Shown one piece after another: positions 1-55,500 of a DNA stretch of 64,000 nt. Numbering within the stretch: the stretch's first letter is position 1; the number at the start of each line of letters is the position of its first letter. The stretch comes from Deltaproteobacteria bacterium (GTDB lineage: Bacteria > Desulfobacterota > Desulfobacteria > Desulfobacterales > Desulfatibacillaceae), in NCBI GenBank assembly GCA_016235345.1, contig JACRLG010000022.1, positions 1-64,000 of the forward strand. The letters run 5' to 3'. The notes below the pieces were generated by a model that saw only the letters and a program-made list of their open reading frames with translations, was not told where the DNA came from and made no database searches. A program made the translations under genes and the position numbers.

Positions 1-934
<934 letters not shown>

Positions 935-4963: not shown

Positions 4964-5089
4964 AGACTGGCGAAAAACCGGTGTTTCGCGCAGGCCTTGT
5001 CAAACGGGCCGCGTAAACGCCGACTTTCCGAATGTCGACGGGGACGGTGATTGGGGTTTATCGAAGGGCGTTACGTAATTTGTGAAGGA

Positions 5090-5262
5090 AGGCCCCCGCA
5101 AGATGCCGTGTGGACAGGTAGCCTTGAACCTGTTTTACAGGTGGGCATCAGATTGCTTTCATCGGGCCTTTTAAAAGGCTCGCCAGAAAGCATGGGCGAT
5201 TCCCGCTTTTTGGGTGTTGGATCAGGCTTATCAGGCCCATCACGAACACCGCAGGGGCATTC
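5090..5262 (-). ncRNA. ssrS: 6S RNA
   Basis: The minus strand directly downstream of zapA carries the 6S 3' signature: an ACAGGTTCAAGG stem-loop (5127-5140 region), then ACCTGTCC and ACGGCATCTTGCGGGGGC. This is closely parallel to the E. coli 6S 3' half (GGGTTCAAGG ... ACAGCCTGCGGCGGCATCTCGG). The 5' end GCCCCTGC near 5251-5259 pairs with the 3' GCGGGGGC at 5092-5099, closing a roughly 173-nt rod. 6S RNA binds RNA polymerase holoenzyme in stationary phase. Position after zapA is the classical location. Ends are estimated from the closing stem. Confidence 0.82.
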
Positions 5263-23584: not shown

Positions 23585-23614
23585 CCCTCCGGCTTATGGC
23601 CGGAGGGTTTTTTT
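23585..23614 (+). terminator. Rho-independent terminator after tRNA-Met
   Basis: CCCTCCGGC, short loop, GCCGGAGGG, then seven T. Confidence 0.9.
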
Positions 23615-23618
23615 ATAG

Positions 23619-23743
23619 AAGGCTGTATAAAAACGCGAATTGCTTCGTTGTGCTTCGCCTCGTGGCTCAGTCACGTACAACAGCGTACGCTTCCTCGCCA
23701 CTCGCTCGCACGCCTTGCACTTCATCGTTTTTATCCAGCCTTC
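23619..23743. repeat. Dispersed hairpin element, copy 3
   Basis: Outer arms GAAGGCTG and CAGCCTTC with TAAAAACG/CGTTTTTA inside them. The core CACGTACAACAGCGTACGC and the flanking CTCGCCACTCGCTCGC match copy 2 in the opposite orientation. Confidence 0.8.
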
Positions 23744-23800
23744 CTGGCCGGGCTTCATGTATTGGCTCTACGGGTCTTTGAACGGGGAGGACGCATTCCC

Positions 23801-24233: not shown

Positions 24234-24761
24234 ATGTTTTCCAGCAAGAACAGGGACCAGGACGCCAGGGAAGAAAAGAACAAGGACACCATGATGAAGG
24301 GCCTTTTCGCGGCCCAGCTCATCCTCTTGGGCCACGTGGTCCTTGTGTGCGCCATCTTCTTCGTGATGGTGTTCTTCCAGGGCGTGGTGCGCTACATGCC
24401 CTGGATATTCCTCACGGTCGGATCCATCATAGCCCTTGTCATCTGGCGGATTTACGCCAAGATGAAAAGGGAGCACAAGAACCTTGGCGATATTCTGCGT
24501 GACCCCATGTTCGAGGGCCGCTCCATAGAGATCAGCTTCATGGGAGGGGCCATGCAGTTGAAGCTCGGCCAGCCCGCAGCCCCCCTTCTCATAGAGGACG
24601 CCAACCCCGGAGTGCGCCAGAACGAGACCAGGCCCGCGCTCCAGATACGCGAACTCACGGCCCTGGCCGTCCTTTTCGAGCGCAAGCTCATAACCGAGGA
24701 CGAGTACAACAAGGCCAAGGGCGACCTCCTGTCATCCGAGCAGAACCCGTCTCAAAGATAG
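24234..24761 (+). CDS. Membrane protein with a SHOCT-like C-terminal segment
   Basis: 175 residues from the ATG at 24234 (AAGGGAAG upstream). Two membrane helices occupy about residues 23-70 (GLFAAQLILLGHVVLVCAIFFVMVFF and MPWIFLTVGSIIALVIWRIY). The C-terminus, IRELTALAVLFERKLITEDEYNKAKGDLL, resembles the short SHOCT motif found at the ends of many oligomerising proteins. I do not recognise a full-length family. It follows the DUF1992 gene by 64 bp and may be co-transcribed. Confidence 0.7.
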   Translation: MFSSKNRDQDAREEKNKDTMMKGLFAAQLILLGHVVLVCAIFFVMVFFQGVVRYMPWIFLTVGSIIALVIWRIYAKMKREHKNLGDILRDPMFEGRSIEISFMGGAMQLKLGQPAAPLLIEDANPGVRQNETRPALQIRELTALAVLFERKLITEDEYNKAKGDLLSSEQNPSQR

Positions 24762-24764
24762 TTA

Positions 24765-24928
24765 CCAGACTGTCTAAAAACGCGAATTGCTGTGTCGTGC
24801 TTCAAAGCCAATTCCGTCACGTACGAACATCTTGATTTAGCCCAAGAACTCTGCGCTTTCTTGGGCGGGTACGCTTGACTCATTGGCTTTTCCCGCGCCT
24901 TGCACTTCATCGCCAATATTCAGACTGG
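24765..24928. repeat. Dispersed hairpin element, copy 4, with a 43-bp central insert
   Basis: GTCTAAAAACGCGAATTG at one end and GCACTTCATCGCCAATATT at the other. Between CACGTAC and GGTACGC there is an insert with its own stem GCCCAAGAA/TTCTTGGGC. The insert is almost identical to the one at 31622-31791. Confidence 0.8.
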
Positions 24929-25023
24929 TATTCAGGCTTCGTGTCGAGACTTCTTAAAGGGGCTGTTTCAAAACGGCCAAAGCCGGTTGCTTTTCCATCC
25001 TGCTTAAATATCGGGCGGAATTC

Positions 25024-31581: not shown

Positions 31582-31621
31582 GGGGTTTTCCACTTCCTTT
31601 CATGGTATGTTCGACCCGCTA

Positions 31622-31791
31622 ACAGCCTGTCTAAAAACGCGAATTGACAGTGCCCGTGCATCAAAGCCAATTCCGTCACGTACGAACATCTTGATTTAGC
31701 CCAAGAACTCTGCGATTTCTTGGGCGGGTACGCTTGACTCATTGGCTTTTCGCACTCCTTGCACTTCATCGCCAATATTCAGAATGGTATC
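31622..31791. repeat. Dispersed hairpin element, copy 5, with a 43-bp central insert
   Basis: Same ends and same central insert (ACATCTTGATTTAGCCC ... CTTGGGCGGG) as the copy at 24765. It lies between divergent genes and fills most of the 31582-31920 gap, so it is not confined to transcript ends. Confidence 0.82.
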
Positions 31792-41649: not shown

Positions 41650-41692
41650 AAGGCCGACCCCCGCATGGATGGGGGGTCGGCCTTGTTTTTTA
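41650..41692 (+). terminator. Rho-independent terminator after the PilZ gene
   Basis: AAGGCCGACCCCC, 8-base loop, GGGGGGTCGGCCTT, then GTTTTTT. Confidence 0.92.
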
Positions 41693-41730
41693 TGGTGCAG
41701 TGCTTATGATTTCTGACGGGCCTTGTTTAA

Positions 41731-41852
41731 CAGCCTGTCTAAAAACGCGAACTGAGGCGTTGTGCTTCAAAGCCAATTCCGTCACGTACATTAAGTACGC
41801 TTACTCATTGGCTTTTCGCACGCCTTGCATTTCATCGTTTTTATCCAGGCTT
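41731..41852. repeat. Dispersed hairpin element, copy 6
   Basis: Outer arms GCCTGTCTAAAAACG and CGTTTTTATCCAGGC. Inner stem AAAGCCAAT/ATTGGCTTT around the core CACGTACATTAAGTACGC. This is the clearest uninterrupted copy. Confidence 0.85.
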
Positions 41853-41944
41853 TAAATCCAGCCTTTTTCAGCAGGCTCATAAAGGTCATCCGAACCGGGC
41901 GAAAACCGCCTGTTCGGCCAATTTCAGCAAAGCAAGGAACGACA

Positions 41945-43684
41945 ATGGACCAGCATGAAAACATGCCCCGGCCCGAGGAAGTGGAAAAGGAAATTTCCGA
42001 GTACCTTTCCAAAAGGTTCGGGGACAAGGTGAAAATCGTGGCCGCAACCGCCCTGGCCGAGGAAGACGGCGAACGCCGGGACAAGGTCGGCCCCTCCAAA
42101 AAAAAGCCCTTCAATTTCAGCATCAAGCCCGAAGAACTCACCGGCTACCTCAACCGCTACATAGTGCGCCAGGACAGGGCCAAGGCCGTACTGTCCACAA
42201 AGATCTGCACCCACTACAACCGTGTGGCCCGCGCCTCCGAAGGCTCTTTCGCCAACTCACCCGCCGTGGGCGGCGTCAAGAACAACGTGCTCCTTTTGGG
42301 TCCCACCGGTGTCGGCAAGACCTACATGATAAGGCTCATCGCCAAAAAACTGGGGGTTCCCTTCGTGAAGGGCGACGCCACCAAGTTTTCGGAAACCGGC
42401 TACGTGGGCGGCGACGTGGAAGATCTGGTGCGCGACCTGGTGCGCGAGTCGGACGACGACCTTGACCGCGCCCAGTACGGCATCATCTACATCGACGAGA
42501 TTGATAAGATCGCTTCGCCCGGAAACGTGATAGGGCTTGACGTTTCCCGCACCGGGGTCCAGCGGGCGCTTTTGAAGCCGATGGAAGAGACCGAGGTTGA
42601 GCTCAAAGTCCCCCACGACCCCATCTCCATGATGCGGGAAATGGAGCGCATGAGGCGCGAGGGCGACAAGGCCCCCCGCACAGTAAGCACCCGGAACATC
42701 CTTTTCATCATGAGCGGCGCTTTCACCGAGCTTTCCCAGATCATCAAAAAGCGCGTGGAAACCCAAGGCATAGGCTTTTCAGCCGCCATGCGCAAAAACG
42801 GCGACGATTCGGGCTATCTGGCCCAGGTGCGGAGCCAGGACCTTGTGGCCTACGGGTTCGAGAGCGAGTTCATAGGCAGGATTCCCATAGTGGCCACCCT
42901 GTCGGCCCTGTCGGCGGATGATCTCTTCGACATCCTCAAAAACCCCAACAACCCCATAATACTAAGCAAAAAGCTCGACTTCGCAGCCTACGGAATAAGC
43001 CTCAAGTTCACCGACTGCGCCCTTAAGCGCATCGCCGAAAACGCCGCAACGGAAAACACGGGCGCGCGCGGCCTCGTGAGCGCGGTGGAAAAGGCCCTCC
43101 TGGTCTTCGAGCACAGGCTTCCGTCAACTGAAATCAAGTCCTTCGTGGTGACCGGCGAGGTGGTGGACGACCCGGACGGGGCGCTTTCAAGGCTTCTGGC
43201 CGACCCGTCCGATCCCTGTTTTCAGGCGGCCTTTGACCGGGCCGCCCAAACCGAGCGCGAGTGGCTGGCCTCCCGGTTCCGCTCGCTTCAGGCGGACCTT
43301 GGGGAAAAGTACGCGGTGAAACTCACCCCGGAGCGGGCGCTGATCGCCGCCGACCTCTACGCCAAATCCCCGGGCGACCTGGAAAGCATCGCCGCCGACC
43401 TCAAAAGGCGTCTGGACCGGGTCAAAACGCTCGAAATCCGCTTTCTGAAGGATCACGACCTGGATATCGCCTTTGATGACGACGCCGCAAACATCCTGGT
43501 TCCGGGCCTCGATACCGAAAACGACCTGGACGCCTGCTACAGGCACTTGACGGCAGGCCTGGAATATGGCCTAAAACTGGTGAAGGAAAAAACCGGGGCC
43601 GGAAAGTTCCTCATCACCCCAAAGGCCCTGAACGAACCGGAAGGCTTTATCAAAGACCTTCTGGCCAGTAAGACGCCCGTCTAA
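41945..43684 (+). CDS. ClpX-like AAA+ ATPase lacking the zinc-binding domain, with extended C-terminus
   Basis: 579 residues from the ATG at 41945 (AAGGA upstream). Walker A is GPTGVGKT (near residue 120), Walker B IIYIDEIDKI, and sensor region EFIGRIPIVATLSAL, all close to ClpX. A GIGFSA segment corresponds to the IGF loop with which ClpX docks on ClpP. The N-terminal Cys4 zinc domain that defines ClpX is missing and replaced by about 50 charged residues. About 170 extra residues follow the ClpX-like core. It may be an alternative unfoldase for ClpP or an independent remodeller. Confidence 0.85.
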   Translation: MDQHENMPRPEEVEKEISEYLSKRFGDKVKIVAATALAEEDGERRDKVGPSKKKPFNFSIKPEELTGYLNRYIVRQDRAKAVLSTKICTHYNRVARASEGSFANSPAVGGVKNNVLLLGPTGVGKTYMIRLIAKKLGVPFVKGDATKFSETGYVGGDVEDLVRDLVRESDDDLDRAQYGIIYIDEIDKIASPGNVIGLDVSRTGVQRALLKPMEETEVELKVPHDPISMMREMERMRREGDKAPRTVSTRNILFIMSGAFTELSQIIKKRVETQGIGFSAAMRKNGDDSGYLAQVRSQDLVAYGFESEFIGRIPIVATLSALSADDLFDILKNPNNPIILSKKLDFAAYGISLKFTDCALKRIAENAATENTGARGLVSAVEKALLVFEHRLPSTEIKSFVVTGEVVDDPDGALSRLLADPSDPCFQAAFDRAAQTEREWLASRFRSLQADLGEKYAVKLTPERALIAADLYAKSPGDLESIAADLKRRLDRVKTLEIRFLKDHDLDIAFDDDAANILVPGLDTENDLDACYRHLTAGLEYGLKLVKEKTGAGKFLITPKALNEPEGFIKDLLASKTPV

Positions 43685-43792
43685 AAACGCGAACTGCTGT
43701 GTCAGGCTTCACGGCGCGGTCCGCCACGTACGAAAAGTACGCTTGCTCCCGCGCCGTTCGCCTTCCTTGCATTTCATCGTTTTTATCCAGGC
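43675..43792. repeat. Dispersed hairpin element, copy 7, overlapping a stop codon
   Basis: Outer arms GTCTAAAAACG and CGTTTTTATCCAGGC. Inner stem CGGCGCGG/CCGCGCCG around CACGTACGAAAAGTACGC. The TAA of the ClpX-like gene (43682-43684) lies inside the conserved end sequence. Confidence 0.85.
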
Positions 43793-43893
43793 TTGATTTT
43801 AATAAATAGAACCCATTTCAAACATATTTTTGAGATGGATTCTAATAAACCGGATTGGCGGCTTAATCCAACACGCGGAATCGACGGAAACCA

Positions 43894-45078
43894 ATGATAG
43901 GAATATCCAAACTCTACTGCGGCGGCGTGGAGCCCTCGGACGCCCTTCGCTACGGCAGGCATTCGGGCAGGCTTCCCTCGCACCTTCTCCAGTTCTCCGA
44001 AGACAAGAAACCCGTGGTGGTGTGGAACATGAGTCGGCGGTGCAATCTTAAATGCGTGCACTGCTACGCCCACGCAACCGCCCAGGCCGGGCCGGAGGAG
44101 CTTACCACGGCGGAGGGCAAGGCCCTCATCGACGACCTTGCCGCCTACGGAAGCCCGGTCATGCTCTTTTCCGGCGGTGAGCCGGTGATGCGGGAAGACC
44201 TGGTGGAGCTTGCCGACCACGCCGTAAAGCGCGGCATGAGGGCCGTAATCTCCACCAACGGGACCTTGATCGACAAGGCGAAGGCCAAGGCCTTAAAGGA
44301 CGTGGGCCTTTCCTACGTGGGCGTGAGCCTGGACGGCATGCGCGAGGTCCACGACAGGTTCCGGGGCGTAAAGGGCGCTTTCGACGAGGCTTTAACCGGC
44401 ATCGACAACTGCCGAGAGGCGGGCATCAAGGTGGGGCTAAGGTTCACCGTCAACAAGCGCAACGCCTCGGAAGTCCCGGCTGTCTTCGATCTATTAGAGG
44501 AGCGCGACATACCGCGCATCTGCTTCTATCACCTGGTCTACGCGGGCCGGGGCACCAAACTCATGGAAGAGGACCTCGACCACGCCGAAACCCGCGCGGT
44601 TGTGGACCTCATCATGGACCGGGCGCGCGATCTCTCCGACCGGGGCAGGCCCAAGGAGGTCCTAACCGTCGATAATCACGCGGACGGGCCCTACGTCTAC
44701 CTGCGGCTTCTGAAGGAGGACCCGGACCGGGCGGCCCAGGTGCTGGAGCTGTTAAAAATGAACGAGGGAAACAGCACAGGCCGGGGCATCGGCTGCGTTA
44801 GCTGGGACGGAAGCGTCCACGCCGACCAGTTCTTCCGCCATGTCACATTCGGAAACGTGCGCCAGCGCCCATTTTCCGTCATCTGGGAGGACCTCTCCCA
44901 CCCCATTCTCGCCAAGTTGAAGGACAAGCGCCCCCACGTCAAGGGCCGTTGCGCCGCCTGCCGCTGGTTGGACATCTGCGGCGGCAACTTCCGCGTCCGC
45001 GCCGAGGCCGCCACCGGCGACCTCTGGGCCCCCGACCCGGCGTGCTATTTAACGGATGATGAGATCAGACCTGCATAA
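43894..45078 (+). CDS. ahbC: Radical SAM enzyme of siroheme-dependent heme synthesis, AhbC type (12,18-didecarboxysiroheme deacetylase)
   Basis: 394 residues. The radical-SAM cluster motif is CNLKCVHC (Cys-x3-Cys-x2-Cys, near residues 51-58), followed by FSGGEPV. The C-terminal region holds a SPASM-like site (CAACRWLDICGG) and ends AEAATGDLWAPDPACYLTDDEI. The start IGISKLYCGGVEPSDALRYGR and WNMSRRCNLKCVHCYA fit the AhbC/NirJ group used by sulfate reducers and archaea to turn siroheme into heme. AhbD is a close relative; the N-terminus argues for AhbC. Other pathway genes are not in the window. Confidence 0.78.
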   Translation: MIGISKLYCGGVEPSDALRYGRHSGRLPSHLLQFSEDKKPVVVWNMSRRCNLKCVHCYAHATAQAGPEELTTAEGKALIDDLAAYGSPVMLFSGGEPVMREDLVELADHAVKRGMRAVISTNGTLIDKAKAKALKDVGLSYVGVSLDGMREVHDRFRGVKGAFDEALTGIDNCREAGIKVGLRFTVNKRNASEVPAVFDLLEERDIPRICFYHLVYAGRGTKLMEEDLDHAETRAVVDLIMDRARDLSDRGRPKEVLTVDNHADGPYVYLRLLKEDPDRAAQVLELLKMNEGNSTGRGIGCVSWDGSVHADQFFRHVTFGNVRQRPFSVIWEDLSHPILAKLKDKRPHVKGRCAACRWLDICGGNFRVRAEAATGDLWAPDPACYLTDDEIRPA

Positions 45079-45085
45079 AAGCACA

Positions 45086-45109
45086 ATGGCCGCGTGAAAA
45101 CGCGGCCAT
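45086..45109 (+). terminator. Hairpin after ahbC
   Basis: ATGGCCGCGT, GAAA tetraloop, ACGCGGCCAT. Very stable, but followed by GATTTAAAC rather than a clear T-run. Confidence 0.6.
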
Positions 45110-45139
45110 GATTTAAACTATCCCGAAACATATTAATAT

Positions 45140-46588
45140 TCATATATAATTACTTCCGTCATCATATAATAATTCTAAATTCATCAACGCCTTAAACGGA
45201 ATCTCATGATGATCAATTTGCCAATCATAAAGATACTTTTCATAAGCTTTATCAAGCCTCTGAATTATTTCCTTTTTTGAAGTTATATTTAATAACTTTT
45301 TTAATCTATTAAAATGGTGCCTATTTGTTGCTCTTATAAAAATCTCAAAAGGCTTTCTATCATAAAATTCTTTATACACCAGCGTTTTTGGAAACCAATA
45401 ATACCCAGTGCTATTATTCAATATCCATCTAAGGCATAAAATGAAATCTGCCTGCATTATGCTTTCAAAAGGCAATGGTTTTATATCAGCCCTATTATGA
45501 ATTAAATCAGCTGTTAACGAAATTCTATTCAGGTTCAATCGCTTATTTCTATTCTCTAAGCCCTCAATATAATTGTTAAATGAACTAAATGACTGCAATT
45601 TTCCACCATTTTTCATCAAGTAGTAATCTTCACTTAAAAATAAATCTAATAGTTCATATTTATTATAACGAATAAGCGTAGCCGCTAAATAGATAAATAG
45701 CTCCATATTGAAAAATTTATAATGATCAAACCATCTTTTATTATATCTTTGCATGTCTTGTGCCGGATAATTAAATTCTAACGCTTTTTCTAAAAATGCA
45801 TGAATAATGTTAAAGGACTCGCCAGCTACCTGAGAGTTAACAACTAACAATAAATACTCAACAAATTGGTCGCGATACGGCTTTAATCTTGCGATGCCAT
45901 CAACTATTTGCTCATCAATATCTTCACTTTCACCCTGAAATCTGATGTCTTCCATCCCTTCCAAAACCCGATCAAGGAAAATATTTCCAAGTATGCCTGC
46001 ACTTGGCTTGCCTGCTAACATCGCCTCCTTGAAAGCTGCAAAAGCATGTTGGCTGGTTCCGGCCCTTGGGGATTCCTCCAATAAATAAGCCGGGGGCTTA
46101 CCGCGTTTGGGCTTTGTTAGCAATGGCCTTTCATATATATTTCTTATAAGTTTTTCATATTCAGCATAGTAATTTTCTGTTTTGGCTAAGTTAATGTACA
46201 TTCGTGTTCCTAAAAAGGTCGGCAACCATGGATTTCCATCTTCTTTAAACTCTACAACAACAGGTATAAATTTTTCCTGTTTCACCTTGGAATATACTTC
46301 TATCGAAATAATTTGTGATTCTGTCCCTACTCCTCCTTCTCTTGCATCAGCTTTTTCCGCATATTTTTGGTCAGAAATGATGATTACTTTTGATATCAGA
46401 GGGTCAGTCACCATCTGTTCCATAAATGCATATTTGTCATGCCCTTCCCTCAATTCCCACTTATCAAGCACTACATTGACACCGTCGCTCATAAGGTTTT
46501 CCGAGAGCTTAATTATGAAATCTTCATGTTGAGGCGAGCTCCAGCTATATGAAATGAATACTCTAGGGGTTTCTAAAGTCGTGGGCAT
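45140..46588 (-). CDS. SEFIR/TIR-domain protein, AT-rich and probably acquired
   Basis: 482 residues. The N-terminal 150 residues carry a SEFIR/TIR-type fold: RVFISYSWSSPQHEDFI, VVLDKWELREGHDKYAFME, VIIISDQKYAEKA, and SQIISIEVYSKVKQEKFIPVVVEF. The remaining 330 residues are helical with no family I recognise. Such proteins often act in NAD-cleaving or signalling antiviral defence, but I see no proof of catalysis. The gene is far richer in A/T than its neighbours. A good promoter (46617-46645) and a single isolated position suggest a self-contained unit. Confidence 0.8.
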   Translation of the reverse strand: MPTTLETPRVFISYSWSSPQHEDFIIKLSENLMSDGVNVVLDKWELREGHDKYAFMEQMVTDPLISKVIIISDQKYAEKADAREGGVGTESQIISIEVYSKVKQEKFIPVVVEFKEDGNPWLPTFLGTRMYINLAKTENYYAEYEKLIRNIYERPLLTKPKRGKPPAYLLEESPRAGTSQHAFAAFKEAMLAGKPSAGILGNIFLDRVLEGMEDIRFQGESEDIDEQIVDGIARLKPYRDQFVEYLLLVVNSQVAGESFNIIHAFLEKALEFNYPAQDMQRYNKRWFDHYKFFNMELFIYLAATLIRYNKYELLDLFLSEDYYLMKNGGKLQSFSSFNNYIEGLENRNKRLNLNRISLTADLIHNRADIKPLPFESIMQADFILCLRWILNNSTGYYWFPKTLVYKEFYDRKPFEIFIRATNRHHFNRLKKLLNITSKKEIIQRLDKAYEKYLYDWQIDHHEIPFKALMNLELLYDDGSNYI

Positions 46589-46616
46589 AGTGCATTATCT
46601 CCTTTCCTTCCAGTCT

Positions 46617-46645
46617 ATATTATGATTCATGTATTACATTGTCAA
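46617..46645 (-). promoter_or_regulatory. Promoter of the SEFIR gene
   Basis: Minus strand: -35 TTGACA (46640-46645), 17-nt spacer, -10 TAATAT (46617-46622), followed by AAGGAG before the ATG. The gene therefore does not depend on read-through from the S24 repressor gene upstream. Confidence 0.72.
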
Positions 46646-46699
46646 GCGCGGCATATCCCATCTACACTTTTTAGAGAAAACTTGCCCAACAAGAGCATG

Positions 46700-47383
46700 T
46701 TATAATTCTTTTCCAACCCACACCACCCTTCCTATGATGACCACCGAGGCGAGGTCGGTTATGGTGTAGTCGCGGTGGCCTTCGGCAATGTTGTCCGAGC
46801 GCACCAGAAGGCTTCCGGGCTCAAGGAAGAGGCGTTTCACCTTCAAAAGCGCCTCCCCTCCCACCACGTCGTCCATGAAGGCGTAAATTTTCCCCGAAAG
46901 CACGTCGGTCAACCGGTTCTTGGAGGTGTCCACCAGGACCAGGTCGCGGTTTCCTATGGTGGGGCTCATGGAGTCGCCCTCCACCTCAAGGGCCACCAGC
47001 CGGTTCACCGGGGCAATTTTGGAGAGCCAGTCCCGCCGGAAAGCCACCTGGAAATCCACCTCCCCCGCGTCGGAAAAGGCCCAGGAGCCGCCCCCGCCCG
47101 AAAGCCTGGCCCTGTGCTTGGGAATCTGCGCAAACTCGCCCTCCCGGTCATCCTCCCTCATCCGGCCCTCGCCGGTTACGAGCCAGTGGAAATTGACCCC
47201 CCGGTCCACGGCCAGCCTGTAGAGGCGCTCCCACGGGAGCGAATCCCGGCTTTTCCAGTTGGCGAAGGTCTGGGGCTTGACGTCCAGCGCAAGGGCCGTC
47301 TGGCGGTCGGATTTCGTGTTCAGAATCACGGCCACGCGATCCAGGATGCTTTCCGCATTCAAAATGAAGTTCTCGCCCGGCAT
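46700..47383 (-). CDS. S24-family (LexA/CI-like) repressor with N-terminal helix-turn-helix
   Basis: 227 residues from the ATG at 47383 (CAGGAGG upstream). The N-terminal part resembles the phage CI helix-turn-helix (ILNTKSDRQTALALDVKPQTFANWKSRDSLP). The C-terminal S24 peptidase domain has VEGDSMSPTIGNRDLVLVD with the catalytic Ser and LLKVKRLFL with the candidate Lys, so self-cleavage is possible. It has no recognisable cleavage-region match to LexA. Normal GC content and absence of phage genes point to a resident regulator. Confidence 0.87.
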   Translation of the reverse strand: MPGENFILNAESILDRVAVILNTKSDRQTALALDVKPQTFANWKSRDSLPWERLYRLAVDRGVNFHWLVTGEGRMREDDREGEFAQIPKHRARLSGGGGSWAFSDAGEVDFQVAFRRDWLSKIAPVNRLVALEVEGDSMSPTIGNRDLVLVDTSKNRLTDVLSGKIYAFMDDVVGGEALLKVKRLFLEPGSLLVRSDNIAEGHRDYTITDLASVVIIGRVVWVGKEL

Positions 47384-47544
47384 GGTGTCCTCCTGACAAA
47401 AAAGCAAACAGAAGCAGAGGTGTCTTGCTTTCAAAAAATTGGAACTTCCGGCCTGACCCGCTTCAAAAGCCTGATTATTCTCCAATTTTTCGTCCAGATA
47501 CGATATTTGTGAGATAAAATCAATAAAAATTCACTCAAATTGGG

Positions 47545-47563
47545 ATATTTTTGTCAAAAATAT
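47545..47563. promoter_or_regulatory. Perfect inverted repeat in the divergent S24/acetoacetyl-CoA synthetase region
   Basis: ATATTTTTG, central T, CAAAAATAT. Lies about 160 bp upstream of the S24 start in an AT-rich stretch (47480-47570); a candidate operator. The remainder of 47384-47761 shows no gene. Confidence 0.45.
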
Positions 47564-47761
47564 GAATTTTAGGCTTCCTGCCCATTTTTCGTGAAATTTC
47601 AGCCAATTGCCCCAAAACGGCCTCCTGCGACGGATTTTCCCCTTTGCCTGCGCCCTCCCGCAGTCCCCTTCTTTTGATGGAAAAGAGGCCCTGCCGCCGT
47701 TTTTTTTCCTGAATGTTTATGCTATAAGGCAGGCTCTCATCAAATCCGAAAAACCTAAAAC

Positions 47762-49756
47762 ATGGCGAAACCAGCGCCGCAAAAGGAAAAAGGGGCCTTT
47801 CACGTGGGAAAACTTCTCTGGCAGCCAGATGAGCTTCGCATAAAAAATTCACGCATGTTCCGCCTGATGGAAAGAATAAACCGGGACTTTGACAAAAATA
47901 TTACAGATTACCACGGCCTTCACCGGTTCAGCGTGGAGAACACGAAGGATTTCTGGGCGATTGTCTGGGACGAGCTTGGGGTGATCGCGTCAAAGCCCTA
48001 TGCCAAAGTGGTGGACGACCCGAAAAAAATGCCCGGAGCCCAGTGGTTTTCAGGGGCCGAGCTCAATTTCGCGGAAAACCTCCTTCGATTCAGGGACGAC
48101 AGGCCCGCCCTGGTTTTTCTGGGCGAGGACGGCCAGCGCTTAAGCCTCACCCACAACGAGCTTTACGACACCGTGGCGAGGCTCGCCAAAAGCCTGAAGG
48201 CGCTGGGCGTCGGCCCCGGCGACCGGGTAGCCGGGTTCGTTCCCAACCGGCCCGAAACCGTGTGCGCCATGCTTGCGGCCACGAGCCTTGGTGCGGCCTG
48301 GTCGTCTTGCAGCCCGGACTTCGGCCCCAAGGGGGTCCTGGACCGCTTCGGACAGATAAGGCCCAAGGTGCTTTTCGCGGGTGACGGCTACTTTTTCAAG
48401 GGCAGGCGCTTCGATTCTCTGGAAAGGGTGCGCGAGGTGGCCCAAAGCCTTCCCACCCTGGAAAAAATCGTGGTTTTCGCCACCTCCGATGCCGCGCCTG
48501 ATCTCTCCTCGGTGCCCCGCGCCGTTGCCTGGGACGATTTCCTTGCAGGCGGCCCGATCCCCGAAATGACCTTCGCCCAGACGCCCTTCATGCATCCCCT
48601 CTACATAATGTATTCCTCCGGCACCACCGGTTTGCCCAAGTGCATGGTCCAGGGCGCGGGCGGAATCCTGCTCCACCACGGCAAGGAGCACGCCTTCCAC
48701 ACGGACATCGGCCCGGACGACGTGGTCTTCTACTTCACCACCTGCGGATGGATGATGTGGAACTGGCTGGTTTCCGTGCTGGCTACGGGGGCCACGGTTG
48801 TGCTTTTCGACGGCAACCCCTTTCACCCGGACCCAGGGGTCCTGTGGCGCATGGCGGAAAGCGAGAAGGTCACGGTCTTCGGCACCAGCGCGGGTTACCT
48901 CACGGCCCTGGCCGCCACCGGCTATGTCCCGAAAAAGGCCTGCGACCTCTCGTCCATCAAGACCCTGCTCTCCACGGGCTCGCCCCTGTCCGACGAGATG
49001 TTCGACTGGGTTTACGAAAACGTTAAGGCCGATCTCCAGCTTGCGTCCATTTCGGGAGGAACGGATTTAAACGGCTGCTTCGCCCTGGGATGCCCCATAA
49101 AGCCCGTTTACGCGGGCGAACTGCAATGCCTTGGGCTTGGCATGGACGTGGAAGCCTGGGACGAAAACGGCAAACCCGTTATCGGAACCCAGGGCGAGCT
49201 TGTGTGCAAGACAGCCTTTCCCTCCATGCCCCTTTATTTCTGGAACGACCCGGACGGCCAGAAATACAACGCCGCCTATTTCGACGTTTATCCCGGAGTG
49301 TGGCGGCACGGGGATTTCGTAACGGTAACAGTTAACGGCGGGGTGGTGATGTACGGAAGGAGCGACGCCACCTTGAATCCGGGCGGGGTGCGCATAGGCA
49401 CGGCGGAAATCTACCGGGTGGTTGACGGCTTTTCCGAGGTGGCCGACTCGGTGGTGGTGGGCCAGGACCACCAAAACGACGTCCGGGTGATCCTGTTCGT
49501 GAAAATGGCCGAGGGCCTTACCCTCACCGACGACCTGAAAAAAAGGTTAGCGGCGGCCATAAGGACCAACGCCTCCCCACGGCACGTGCCCGCGAAGATC
49601 ATAGAGGTTCCCGACGTGCCCTATACCTTGAACATGAAAAAGGTGGAGCTTGCGGTAAAAAATATCATCGAGAACAAGCCGGTGAAGAACCGCGACGCTC
49701 TGGCCAACCCGGACGCTCTCGAGTTTTACAAAAATCTTCCGGAGTTGGCCGACTGA
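47762..49756 (+). CDS. Acetoacetyl-CoA synthetase
   Basis: Activates acetoacetate to its CoA ester with ATP (ANL adenylating superfamily). 664 residues, the usual AACS length. Adenylation motif YSSGTTGLPKCMVQGAGG (near residue 280), GGTDLNGCFALGCP, YGRSDATLNPGGVRIGTAEIYR and the late Lys region YTLNMKKVELAVKN are present. The N-terminal part (FWAIVWDELGVIASKPY) matches the AACS/ACS leader domain. It links ketone-body or branched-chain breakdown to central metabolism. Confidence 0.93.
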   Translation: MAKPAPQKEKGAFHVGKLLWQPDELRIKNSRMFRLMERINRDFDKNITDYHGLHRFSVENTKDFWAIVWDELGVIASKPYAKVVDDPKKMPGAQWFSGAELNFAENLLRFRDDRPALVFLGEDGQRLSLTHNELYDTVARLAKSLKALGVGPGDRVAGFVPNRPETVCAMLAATSLGAAWSSCSPDFGPKGVLDRFGQIRPKVLFAGDGYFFKGRRFDSLERVREVAQSLPTLEKIVVFATSDAAPDLSSVPRAVAWDDFLAGGPIPEMTFAQTPFMHPLYIMYSSGTTGLPKCMVQGAGGILLHHGKEHAFHTDIGPDDVVFYFTTCGWMMWNWLVSVLATGATVVLFDGNPFHPDPGVLWRMAESEKVTVFGTSAGYLTALAATGYVPKKACDLSSIKTLLSTGSPLSDEMFDWVYENVKADLQLASISGGTDLNGCFALGCPIKPVYAGELQCLGLGMDVEAWDENGKPVIGTQGELVCKTAFPSMPLYFWNDPDGQKYNAAYFDVYPGVWRHGDFVTVTVNGGVVMYGRSDATLNPGGVRIGTAEIYRVVDGFSEVADSVVVGQDHQNDVRVILFVKMAEGLTLTDDLKKRLAAAIRTNASPRHVPAKIIEVPDVPYTLNMKKVELAVKNIIENKPVKNRDALANPDALEFYKNLPELAD

Positions 49757-52497: not shown

Positions 52498-52533
52498 AAG
52501 GTGCCTATGCCCTCTGAAAAAAGGCTGAACGCA

Positions 52534-52590
52534 ACGCCGGATAAAAACGATGAAGTACGACACCGCAATTCGCGTTTTTAGACAGGCGTT
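52534..52590. repeat. Dispersed hairpin element, copy 8, internally deleted
   Basis: AACGCCGGATAAAAACG and CGTTTTTAGACAGGCGTT are the outer arms; only about 20 bp remain between them (GATGAAGTACGACACCGCAA). It ends at the stop codon of the giant protein gene. Confidence 0.75.
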
Positions 52591-55500
52591 ACATCCGGCC
52601 CTTGATCCAGGAGCTATATATCCCCATTCCAGCTATGGCCGCCAGTATGGCCAGAGACAGGAGCCAGCAGGCCCCGGACGAATTTTTGGCCACCGTCTCC
52701 ACGAAGCAGGCCCCGCCCGATGCCACGCTCCCGGCCTCGCCTATGGCGTCCGGGCTTCCGGTGTTCGCGCCGCCGATGCCCGGAGGCGAGGGCGGGGTGC
52801 GGTTAAGGGTCGATGCAAAGGCCGTACCGACTCCCCTTGAAAGCAGCCTTGCCGCGCTTGCCAGGAAGGTGTCCTTTTCATTGGCCCCCACCAGCTCCCC
52901 GAAGGCCGGAACGGAAATCCTTATGATGACGTCCTGCTTCTGCGGGTTGAACACGAAGTAGCCGGTGTTGGCCTTCATGATATTGGTGACCACGTACCCG
53001 TTGTCGCCGTCCAGGGCGTTGGGCGGGTCATAGTCGTAGAGGGGCTCGCCCGAAAGTGGATCGGCTCCGTAGGCGTCGGTGGGAGCAACAAAGGTCTGGC
53101 CGTCCAGGGAACGCTCCACCGCGCTCCAGTTCATTTCCCTGGGGAAGGGGTTTCCGATCATGTTCCAGCCGGGTATGAGCCTTAAGTAGAACGGGTCGGG
53201 CGAAACGGCGAGGCCCGGCACCGATACGGTTTTCGTTGCGCGGCTTATGGCCCAGAAGGCCCGCCCGGCCTCAAGGGGGAAGCGCTCGCTGAAATCCGCT
53301 GCGTCGCCTTCCACGTAATACTCGTTGGGGTTGCCCCCGGCGAGAAGGGCGTTGTCCACGCCGAAGAGCCGCCACATGCGGTCGTCGTAGGTTCCAAGGT
53401 TGGCCGGGTCGGACAGAATCCCGGTCAGGTTTTCGGATGAAGCCGCGTGGGCCGGGAAGCACACCATGCGGTAGTCGGCCACCGTGCTTCCTGCGGCCAA
53501 GGTTTTTGTGAAGGTGCTTGGTTCCGCCACCGTGAAAAGCGAGAAATGCGGAGTGGAGAAGGTAAGGCGCTCGCTTCCGGGAGTGGAATCCCTGCCCGTT
53601 ATGGGCAGGCCCACCCAGCGGCTCTTTACGGAATCATAGGTAAGAGCCACCAGATTGTTCAGAACCGCTCCCCCGCCCACCAGCCCGGACACGGGAACGC
53701 CCACCAGCACGTTTTGGGCAAAGGCCATGCCCGAAGGCTCCACAAGGGCCTTTAAGGTGGAGTTCTCGAAAAGATAGGGCCAGCCGAGAAGCACCCTGGC
53801 CGCCGTAATGTCGAAGGGGGCCGGGGCCGCGCCCGCAGGCACGAAAAAGCTCCATCCCAGAAGGTCGCCCGACCCGATGTTGAAGCTGTTGTCCACCGCC
53901 GGGTTTTCCACCGGCATGGTGTAGACGGGCGAGGTGTTCAAGAGCACCACCTCAAAAGGCCCTGACACCAAGCTGAAAGCCTCAGGAGCCGCCGGGGTCG
54001 AATCCGTGATCCTTATGAGGGCCGGATCCACGCCGTCGCCGGTGGGTCCGACGGGCACCAAGGTGAAGGCCCCGTTGGTCTTTCCGTCAACAAGTCCCGT
54101 GAGGTTAGCCACTGTCCCGGCCCCGCTGGCCAGGGCCACGCTGTAGGGCGGGGTTCCACCCGTGATGTTGAAATCAATCGGCTGGGGAGTCGCGCCGTAC
54201 AGGAAGGCCGTGCCGCTCATGGGCGAAAGCGACAGGGCCGGGACCACGGTTATGGTGAAGGCCTGGCCTTCGGCGGTGGCGTTTCCGGCAACCACCTTGG
54301 GAACCAGGGAAGTGGATGTTCCGACAACGCCGCTGCCCGGCGTCCAGTTGACTATGGCCGGTGATGCGCCGAAAACCGGCTGGTTGAAGGTAAGTCCGTC
54401 GGGGACCGTTCCCAGGAGTGAAAAATCCAGCGGATCCACCGCCGTTTCCCAGGACGCGGTAAATTCCAGGCAGAAGGGCCGGCCCTCCATGGCGTAATAG
54501 AGGGGAGCCGCCACCTTGGGCACAGGAGCCGTGAGAGAGTCCCTGAGCTCATAGCAGCCTATGTCGAAACGCCCGCCCACCGGACGGTTCACTGCCCTTA
54601 TGTCGATGCCCACGTAGAGAGGCTCGTCGGCGATGGGGGCCGGATCAAGGGCGTCCTTGGCCGGAGAGGTGGGGCCGGGCCGGTAGTCGCCGTTGTCGCG
54701 GTCAACGAACATCGGGTCGAACGCGATGTCGCCCGTTCCCATGGCTATGCCGAAATATTCGCCGTCGTCGTTGCCCCACACGATGTTGCGCCCAAGGGCC
54801 GGGGAGCCGTTAAGCCTGTTGACGCCGTAACGCCCGTTGACGGCCAGTATGTTGTAATAGACCTTGGCGCTGGAGTTGGCCAGGTTCACGCCGTCGTAGT
54901 TGTTGTCCGTTATGGTGTTGAAGGAAATAACCGGCTGGGGAAAACCGGCGTCCCCGGTGTTCTGGTCGTAGGCGTAGACGCCGGAAACCCCGTTCCAAAA
55001 AATGAGGTTGTTTTCCAGCACGTTGGCTTCGTTGGCGGTGATGAGCACGCCGTCGCCGATGTTTTCCGTTATGCGGCAGCCGGAAATGACGTTGCCTGTG
55101 GTTCCCTGGGAGTGGGCGGAAAGCTCGACGCCCGCCACCCCGCCGTTTATTATGGTGAAGCCCTTCAGGATGAAGTTGTCCGTGCCGAAAAGGGTGACAA
55201 CGGCCAGGTTGGCGTTGCCCTCCAAAATCGTGGTTTCAGGGTTCTCGCCCACGAGCCTGATGCCGGAGTGCCTCTCGCCAAGCTCCAGGGTCTCATGATA
55301 GGTTCCCGGATGCACCAGGATGGTGTCGCCGCCCGTCGCGTCCAGAAGCGCCCCGGTTATGGTGGCGTATTGATTGGGCACCTCGAAGGTGGCGTTTTCC
55401 CTCACGGTGAAGTTTATGGTGTCGTCCCCGGCTATGGGGTTTGAAGCCCCGTCCATGCAGTAAATCCGCACAGAGTGGGCCGTGCCCACGGTCAGGGAGG

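What the first reader, a model, noticed from the sequence alone, without database searches (positions are those of the whole stretch)
41731..43792. Hairpin repeat family whose internal stems change together
At least eight copies share end sequences (GTCTAAAAACGCG / CATCGTTTTTATCC), a core of CACGTAC-n-GTACGC and an outer stem. The inner stem differs between copies: AAAGCCAAT/ATTGGCTTT at 41731, CGGCGCGG/CCGCGCCG at 43675, GTGGC/GCCAC at 23619. Changing both arms in step implies that pairing itself is conserved, as RNA or as a cruciform. Copies sit at convergent, tandem and divergent junctions, so a terminator role alone does not explain them. No transposase is nearby, so they may be non-autonomous or REPIN-like.
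Basis: partly seen in the sequence, partly recalled or inferred. Interest (0 to 1): 0.72.

Follow-up and report, generated by a model that had tools for sequence, protein, structure and literature searches.

The report
Phylum-wide mobile hairpins at stop codons
This bacterial genome carries about 560 scattered copies of a jumping DNA hairpin, mostly placed right behind the stop codons of genes, whose paired arms change letters together so that one DNA strand can always fold, and relatives of it occur in a large share of the bacterial phylum.

Summary
The window has eight copies. The sampled genome (1.18 Mb) has 166 (140/Mb, so about 560 in all), and a covariance model finds the family across the order (27/59 genomes) and phylum (72/247). 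Covariation is extreme: 25 of 34 pairs change on both sides, and arms of one stem are locked while different stems vary almost independently. At three orthologous sites 13 of 17 pair changes are Watson-Crick double changes.

It is a non-autonomous mobile element. The 5' end abuts the stop codon of a co-oriented gene in about 70% of copies.

The constraint does not look like mRNA folding. G-T wobble is rare (0.8% against 6.8% in tRNAs), one C.T mismatch in stem 2 is almost always kept, and the strand opposite the mRNA folds better in 143/144, 61/62 and 53/54 copies. Best reading: a MITE-like element whose bottom strand folds as a hairpin read by an unidentified recombinase or transposase, somewhat as attC sites work, though it is neither an attC nor a RAYT-REPIN. 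The mobilising enzyme was not found.

The parts
41727..41856 (+). Element copy 1, core hairpin; full element about 41731-41878 with tail; left flank TTAA 41727-41730, right ATAA 41879-41882 (3 of 4 match)
   Evidence: R1 hit 129.8 bits; sequence; TSD offset
41733..41747 (+). Copy 1, 5' outer arm (GCCTG 41733-41737, TAAAAACG 41740-41747); partner 41836-41850 (CGTTTTTA, CAGGC)
   Evidence: fold; pair counts
41769..41777 (+). Copy 1, inner stem 5' arm AAAGCCAAT; partner ATTGGCTTT 41807-41815
41785..41799 (+). Copy 1, apical hairpin CGTAC-attaa-GTACG
41851..41878 (+).
   Evidence: logo, phylum copies
43669..43798 (+). Element copy 2; the upstream ORF 41825-43684 ends on the TAA inside the element's TCTAAAAACG
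   Evidence: R1 hit 137.5 bits; ORF
23615..23746 (+). Element copy 3, just after a terminator-like hairpin with T-run behind the tRNA gene
   Evidence: R1 hit 106.6 bits; sequence
24762..24931 (+). Element copy 4, with a roughly 40-nt hairpin (GCCCAAGAA...TTCTTGGGC) inserted in the apical loop and an alternative 3' arm; upstream gene stop TAG at 24759-24761
   Evidence: R1 hit 88.4 bits; sequence
31619..31790 (+). Element copy 5, long variant of the same length class as copy 4
   Evidence: R1 hit 69.9 bits
14767..14900 (-). Element copy 6 (GAGGGCG-type outer stem)
   Evidence: R1 hit 81.8 bits
2991..3122 (-). Element copy 7 (divergent outer stem, fully re-paired)
   Evidence: R1 hit 78.9 bits; fold
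52529..52594 (-). Mini form (about 65 bp): outer stem kept, inner stems deleted
   Evidence: R1 hit 43.2 bits; sequence

Best explanation
A family of short non-autonomous transposable elements (about 150 bp plus a 4-bp target duplication; MITE-like). SHOWN: high copy number, presence or absence at orthologous sites, inverted-repeat ends with duplicated YTRR target, and a multi-stem imperfect hairpin whose arms are locked by compensatory change. INFERRED: the bottom strand (opposite to the mRNA of the upstream gene) is what folds, probably as single-stranded DNA exposed by replication or transcription; a recombinase or transposase supplied in trans reads the fold (helices plus conserved mismatches and the GTAC tip) rather than the helix sequence, so helices are free to change as long as they pair, and inserts the element at YTRR. 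YTRR contains the stop triplets TAA, TAG and TGA, and insertion there regenerates the stop, so insertions behind stop codons (or behind terminators) are harmless and survive. Pairing continues to be kept after insertion, as the orthologous copies show.
For: Copy number and spread. Covariation; arms of one stem share 48-84% of information (bias-corrected), different stems 6-14%. Orthologous copies: 13 two-sided WC-to-WC changes of 17 changed pairs, 3 one-sided. Presence/absence between G000 and G001 at about half of the testable intervals. TSDs: direct 4-mers TTAG, TTAA, CTAA, CTGA, ATAG, CTGG, TTGG, CTAT in many phylum copies; in this genome the 4-mer at the predicted offset matches in 10/125 copies against 1.3 expected. 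Stop-codon adjacency: 101 of 112 copies with a co-oriented upstream gene; 106/144 against 15% for random intergenic points; 22/40 in other genomes. Wobble: GT 36, AC 105, WC 4614 here, GT 29, AC 21 in G001, against 12 GT, 0 AC, 165 WC in 8 tRNAs of these genomes. Conserved C.T/T.C mismatch in stem 2 while letters change. Bottom strand more stable with DNA parameters in 143/144, 61/62, 53/54 copies, control 157/278.
Against: No mobilising enzyme was found. Y1_Tnp does not track the element; PF01609 is missing from several element-rich genomes (G011, G252, G341, G151), PF13546 from all ten and PF13701 from seven of ten; no ORF flanked by split element ends in 1.4 Mb. Target duplications suggest a staggered double-strand cut, which known hairpin-ssDNA systems (IS200/IS605, attC) do not make (own knowledge). 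Bottom-strand stability follows partly from Y.Y mismatches becoming R.R, so it is not independent of the mismatch evidence. TSDs in this genome are detectable in a minority of copies only.
Confidence: 0.55

Rival explanations
1. The hairpin acts in the mRNA: a mobile 3'-UTR element that ends transcription, protects the 3' end or slows ribosomes at the stop codon, and pairing is kept by selection on the top-strand RNA.
For: Fixed orientation with the 5' end on the stop codon; E. coli REPs within 15 nt of a stop codon are reported to stall ribosomes (PMC12306157); maintained pairing at orthologous copies.
Against: Almost no G-U on the top strand and no excess over A-C; top strand is the weaker fold in nearly every copy; no terminator-like site found at the two copies 41.7-43.8 kb; 28 of 117 tandem copies lie in the opposite orientation.
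Confidence: 0.17
2. A functional RNA transcribed from the bottom strand (antisense to the upstream gene), for example a guide or regulator of the mobilising enzyme.
For: Bottom strand is the better fold under RNA parameters in 137/144, 59/62, 54/54 copies; top-strand A-C outnumbers G-T in this genome, that is bottom-strand wobble.
Against: Bottom-strand wobble still only about 1-2%; in G001 the asymmetry is absent; no Rfam family; no promoter-like site seen in the region scanned (weak test).
Confidence: 0.15
3. Ordinary DDE-type MITE whose hairpin is mechanically perfected by template-switch (quasipalindrome) correction between arms, with no functional fold.
For: TIR plus 4-bp YTRR TSD, as in some DDE insertion-sequence families (own knowledge); exact Watson-Crick complementarity; 3' arm mirrors the end of the host gene in some copies.
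Against: Internal mismatches and asymmetric loops (C against AT; one Y.Y in stem 2) are kept in nearly all copies instead of being healed; the core structure is recognisable phylum-wide.
Confidence: 0.1

Closest known systems
REP / REPIN elements with RAYT (GTAG- and CGTC-tagged palindromes, PMC3733652)
   Same: Hundreds of dispersed intergenic palindromes; complementary changes in stems; conserved stem mismatches in some families; the GTAG terminus often supplies the stop codon TAG of the flanking ORF.
   Different: About 150 bp with four stacked stems instead of 20-40 bp; inverted-repeat ends and 4-bp target duplications; not associated with the genome's RAYT; wobble rare, whereas GT pairing is described as frequent in GTAG REPs.
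Bacterial MITEs (Chunjie of Geobacter uraniireducens, Correia, ERIC/IRU; review PMC10969869)
   Same: Short, high copy, intergenic, TIRs and direct repeats, no ORF.
   Different: Arms of all internal stems covary and the fold is conserved across a phylum; known MITEs are defined by their TIRs. Relation to Chunjie untested (paper not held).
Integron attC sites
   Same: Sit right behind the ORF's stop codon, co-oriented; structure conserved while sequence varies; bottom strand is the stronger fold; conserved unpaired bases (attC properties from own knowledge).
   Different: R'' RYYYAAC in 3/125 and R' GTTRRRY in 3/125 copies; no integron integrase above cut-off in this genome or G001, G045, G330, G252, G341; copies dispersed singly; target duplicated.
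'Multicopy nucleotide sequences' of Geobacteraceae genomes (PMC2700814, PMC2996986, PMC3543383)
   Same: Intergenic multicopy families in delta-proteobacteria, some palindromic.
   Different: Alignments are in supplements that could not be opened; identity with this family is unknown.

Membership tests
MITE (non-autonomous transposon) | Terminal inverted repeats | tested here: met
   CAGGCTGTTGAAAAAC ... CTTTTTCAACAACCTG in G330/G280/G341 copies
MITE (non-autonomous transposon) | Target-site duplication | tested here: met
   4-bp direct repeats in many phylum copies; 10/125 against 1.3 expected in own genome
MITE (non-autonomous transposon) | Parental transposase with the same ends | tested here: inconclusive
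   PF01609, PF13701, PF13546, PF01797 searched; no partner found, not exhaustive
REP / REPIN with RAYT | Cognate Y1 HUH transposase flanked by the repeat | tested here: not met
   Only Y1_Tnp at C17:84890; no element copy detected in its locus; none detected in G001
REP / REPIN with RAYT | 20-40 bp palindrome with GTAG or CGTC foot | tested here: not met
   About 150 bp; foot is the variable duplicated YTRR
Integron attC site | R'' RYYYAAC and R' GTTRRRY boxes | tested here: not met
   3/125 and 3/125 copies
Integron attC site | Integron integrase in the genome | tested here: not met
   No hit above the TIGR02249 cut-off in G000
Known structured RNA (Rfam) | Match to an Rfam family | tested here: not met
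   No hit at gathering threshold in window or relatives that covers the element; only a chance hit at E 0.69
Intrinsic terminator | GC stem followed at once by T-run | tested here: not met
   Scan finds none at the two copies; the T-run lies in the paired outer arm

The most novel reading that the evidence does not exclude
A phylum-wide class of transposon whose substrate is a structure-coded single DNA strand (bottom strand, helices free in sequence, purine-purine mismatches fixed), moved in trans by an undescribed enzyme that nevertheless makes a 4-bp target duplication and whose YTRR target lets it settle on stop codons.
Probability: 0.33. Interest if true: 0.85.

Novelty: new variant of a known kind. 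Interest (0 to 1): 0.66.

Why it matters
It is one of the most abundant repeats in this genome (about 1.7% of the sampled DNA) and occurs in roughly a third of sampled genomes of the phylum, yet it matches no Rfam family and none of six diagnostic sequence strings occurs in the open papers searched. Its hundreds of natural variants with locked arms and a fixed mismatch amount to a mutational scan of what a hairpin-reading enzyme needs, and its placement on stop codons links a mobile element's target choice to harmless insertion.

Tried and rejected
RAYT/REPIN: rejected. Integron attC: rejected on boxes and integrase; relatives with integrases exist, and an attC-like site in L320 looks different. 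Palindrome correction alone: disfavoured because the mismatches survive. Replication-strand bias: GC skew too weak on these contigs to use. DDE partner by three Pfam families and by scanning for split elements: nothing. Phage, plasmid and IMG/VR collections: no hits. Literature by sequence words: none. Rfam: none. A Pfam scan of the neighbouring genes failed on one wrong coordinate and was not repeated.

Full report
WHAT IS THERE. The window holds eight copies of a 120-130 nt imperfect hairpin, two of them at the coordinates given. The shared core is far beyond chance, and single copies fold much better than shuffled sequence. The window is part of a 4.0-Mb draft genome. In 1.18 Mb of it an nhmmer model finds 166 copies, 140 per Mb, which extrapolates to about 560; the covariance model R1 scored its 150 best candidates genome-wide, all at E < 1e-19. 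By DNA similarity the family reaches the sister genome G001 (apparently the MAG WY2.bin34, judged from matching contig lengths) and two more relatives. By R1 it reaches 27 of 59 relatives from the order and 72 of 247 genomes of the phylum at E <= 1e-6, with only 13 candidates scored in each. No Rfam family matches.

COVARIATION. On 53 copies, 94.2% of cells form pairs (shuffle mean 75.5, slid structures about 40), 25 of 34 pairs change on both sides and 329 cells do so (shuffle mean 103); no shuffle of 500 reaches these values. Arms of the same stem share 84% (stem 2), 61% (stem 3) and 48% (outer) of the available information, whereas different stems share 6-14%. So stems vary nearly independently of each other while the arms stay locked; this is not a set of a few subfamilies. 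At three sites where the two sister species clearly carry the same copy, 13 of 17 changed pairs are Watson-Crick to Watson-Crick changes on both sides, 3 are one-sided. Pairing is therefore maintained after insertion.

WHAT KIND OF PAIRING. If the top strand (the mRNA of the upstream gene) were selected, G-U should be common and A-C rare. In this genome there are 36 G-T, 105 A-C and 4614 Watson-Crick cells; in G001 29, 21 and 1995; in eight tRNAs from the same sequence sets 12, 0 and 165. The tRNA control is small and the covariance-model alignment leans towards G-U, so the deficit is, if anything, understated. One pyrimidine-pyrimidine mismatch in stem 2 is kept while the letters around it change: ACTG/CATT 41, ATCG/CGCT 25, TCCG/CGGC 15, ATTG/CACT 12, TCTG/CAGC 7 of 117 copies, each with one C.T or T.C. 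On the bottom strand these become purine-purine mismatches. With DNA energies the bottom strand is the better fold in 143/144, 61/62 and 53/54 copies of this genome, G001 and the phylum, against 157/278 control segments. The constraint thus appears strand-specific, on the strand opposite to the mRNA, and not of the wobble-tolerant kind. The mismatches speak against mere palindrome correction between arms, which would have healed them.

MOBILITY. Orthologous intervals between the sister species show presence/absence at about half of the testable places; in three alignable cases the native stop codon of the upstream gene sits at the same codon with and without the element (the codon comparison is by reading the alignments). 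Copies from distant genomes show that the element continues past the hairpin into a tail that is an inverted copy of its 5' end, and that 4-bp direct repeats (TTAG, TTAA, CTAA, CTGA, ATAG, CTGG, TTGG, CTAT and others) flank the whole (identified by eye in the printed sequences). In this genome the 4-mer before the element equals the 4-mer at the predicted place behind the tail in 10 of 125 copies (1.3 expected), the best of 47 offsets tried. The element is therefore a non-autonomous transposon with a YTRR-like target.

STOP CODONS. Of 112 copies with a co-oriented upstream gene (own simple gene caller), 101 have that gene's stop codon within about 13 nt of the element's start, 44 of them at exactly one offset. 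With a caller-free test the figure is 106 of 144, against 15% for random intergenic points, and 22 of 40 in other genomes. Copies not at stop codons often follow the T-run of a terminator. YTRR contains all three stop triplets, and a duplicated target keeps the reading frame intact; target choice plus removal of harmful insertions would explain the pattern. Why the 5' end rather than the 3' end faces the stop is explained if the target is read with polarity; this is inference.

MECHANISM. Most likely the bottom strand folds as single-stranded DNA and is recognised by structure by an enzyme supplied in trans, as attC sites are by integron integrases and REPs by RAYTs (own knowledge of those systems). 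The enzyme was not found: the Y1 transposase gene has no copy of this element at its locus, and none was detected in G001; three DDE families do not track the element; no split copy encloses a gene. Integron integrases occur in four of ten relatives examined but not here, and the attC boxes are absent. The target duplication is unexpected for known single-strand hairpin systems and is the main tension in this account.

KNOWN OR NEW. It resembles REPs (stop-codon termini, complementary stem changes; PMC3733652, PMC12306157), MITEs (PMC10969869) and attC sites, and fits none fully except the broad MITE definition. Geobacteraceae papers mention palindromic multicopy intergenic families (PMC2700814, PMC2996986, PMC3543383), but their alignments could not be opened, so an earlier unnamed record is possible. 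ISfinder was not available.

Noticed in passing
window 24762-24931 and other copies (14 of 166): A hairpin of about 40 nt (GCCCAAGAA-n-TTCTTGGGC) sits in the apical loop of 14 copies, apparently always at the same point: a heritable insertion in the element's tip.
   Followed up: partly
L159:16800-16864, L064:6186-6250, L158:19765-19829, L157:15082-15146, L068:4218-4282, L074:5528-5592; window 52529-52594: A recurring mini form of 65-66 bp keeps the outer stem and loses all inner stems.
   Followed up: no
window 24900-24945; 8 of 166 copies: Alternative 3' arm (CATCGCCAATATTCAGACTGGTATCCAGGC) that no longer pairs with AAAAACG but pairs further out.
   Followed up: no
L091 (G000:C17:83390-86629): The genome's single Y1/RAYT-like transposase gene lies between copies of a different palindrome (TTCCTGGGAGCGCGGGCG...), and the same palindrome occupies a site where the sister species has the present element (C28 near 373400).
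   Followed up: partly
window 23600-23625, 41660-41735; C28:64686, C2:47945: Copies not at stop codons often start directly behind the T-run of an intrinsic terminator.
   Followed up: partly
G027 contigs C100, C120, C125, C140, C144, C145 and others: In G027 many near-identical copies lie at contig ends, suggesting recent amplification that breaks the assembly.
   Followed up: no
G027:C26, C56, C166, C320; G280:C80, C109; G011:C34; G151:C398: Integron integrases (and, in G027, several truncated pieces, some at contig ends) occur in some element-rich relatives; an attC-like site in L320 has a different sequence from the element.
   Followed up: partly
window 1-933 (-), 5089-5260 (-), 44001-48000: Partial 16S rRNA and a 6S RNA gene; GC content dips to 0.49 at 44-48 kb.
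   Followed up: no
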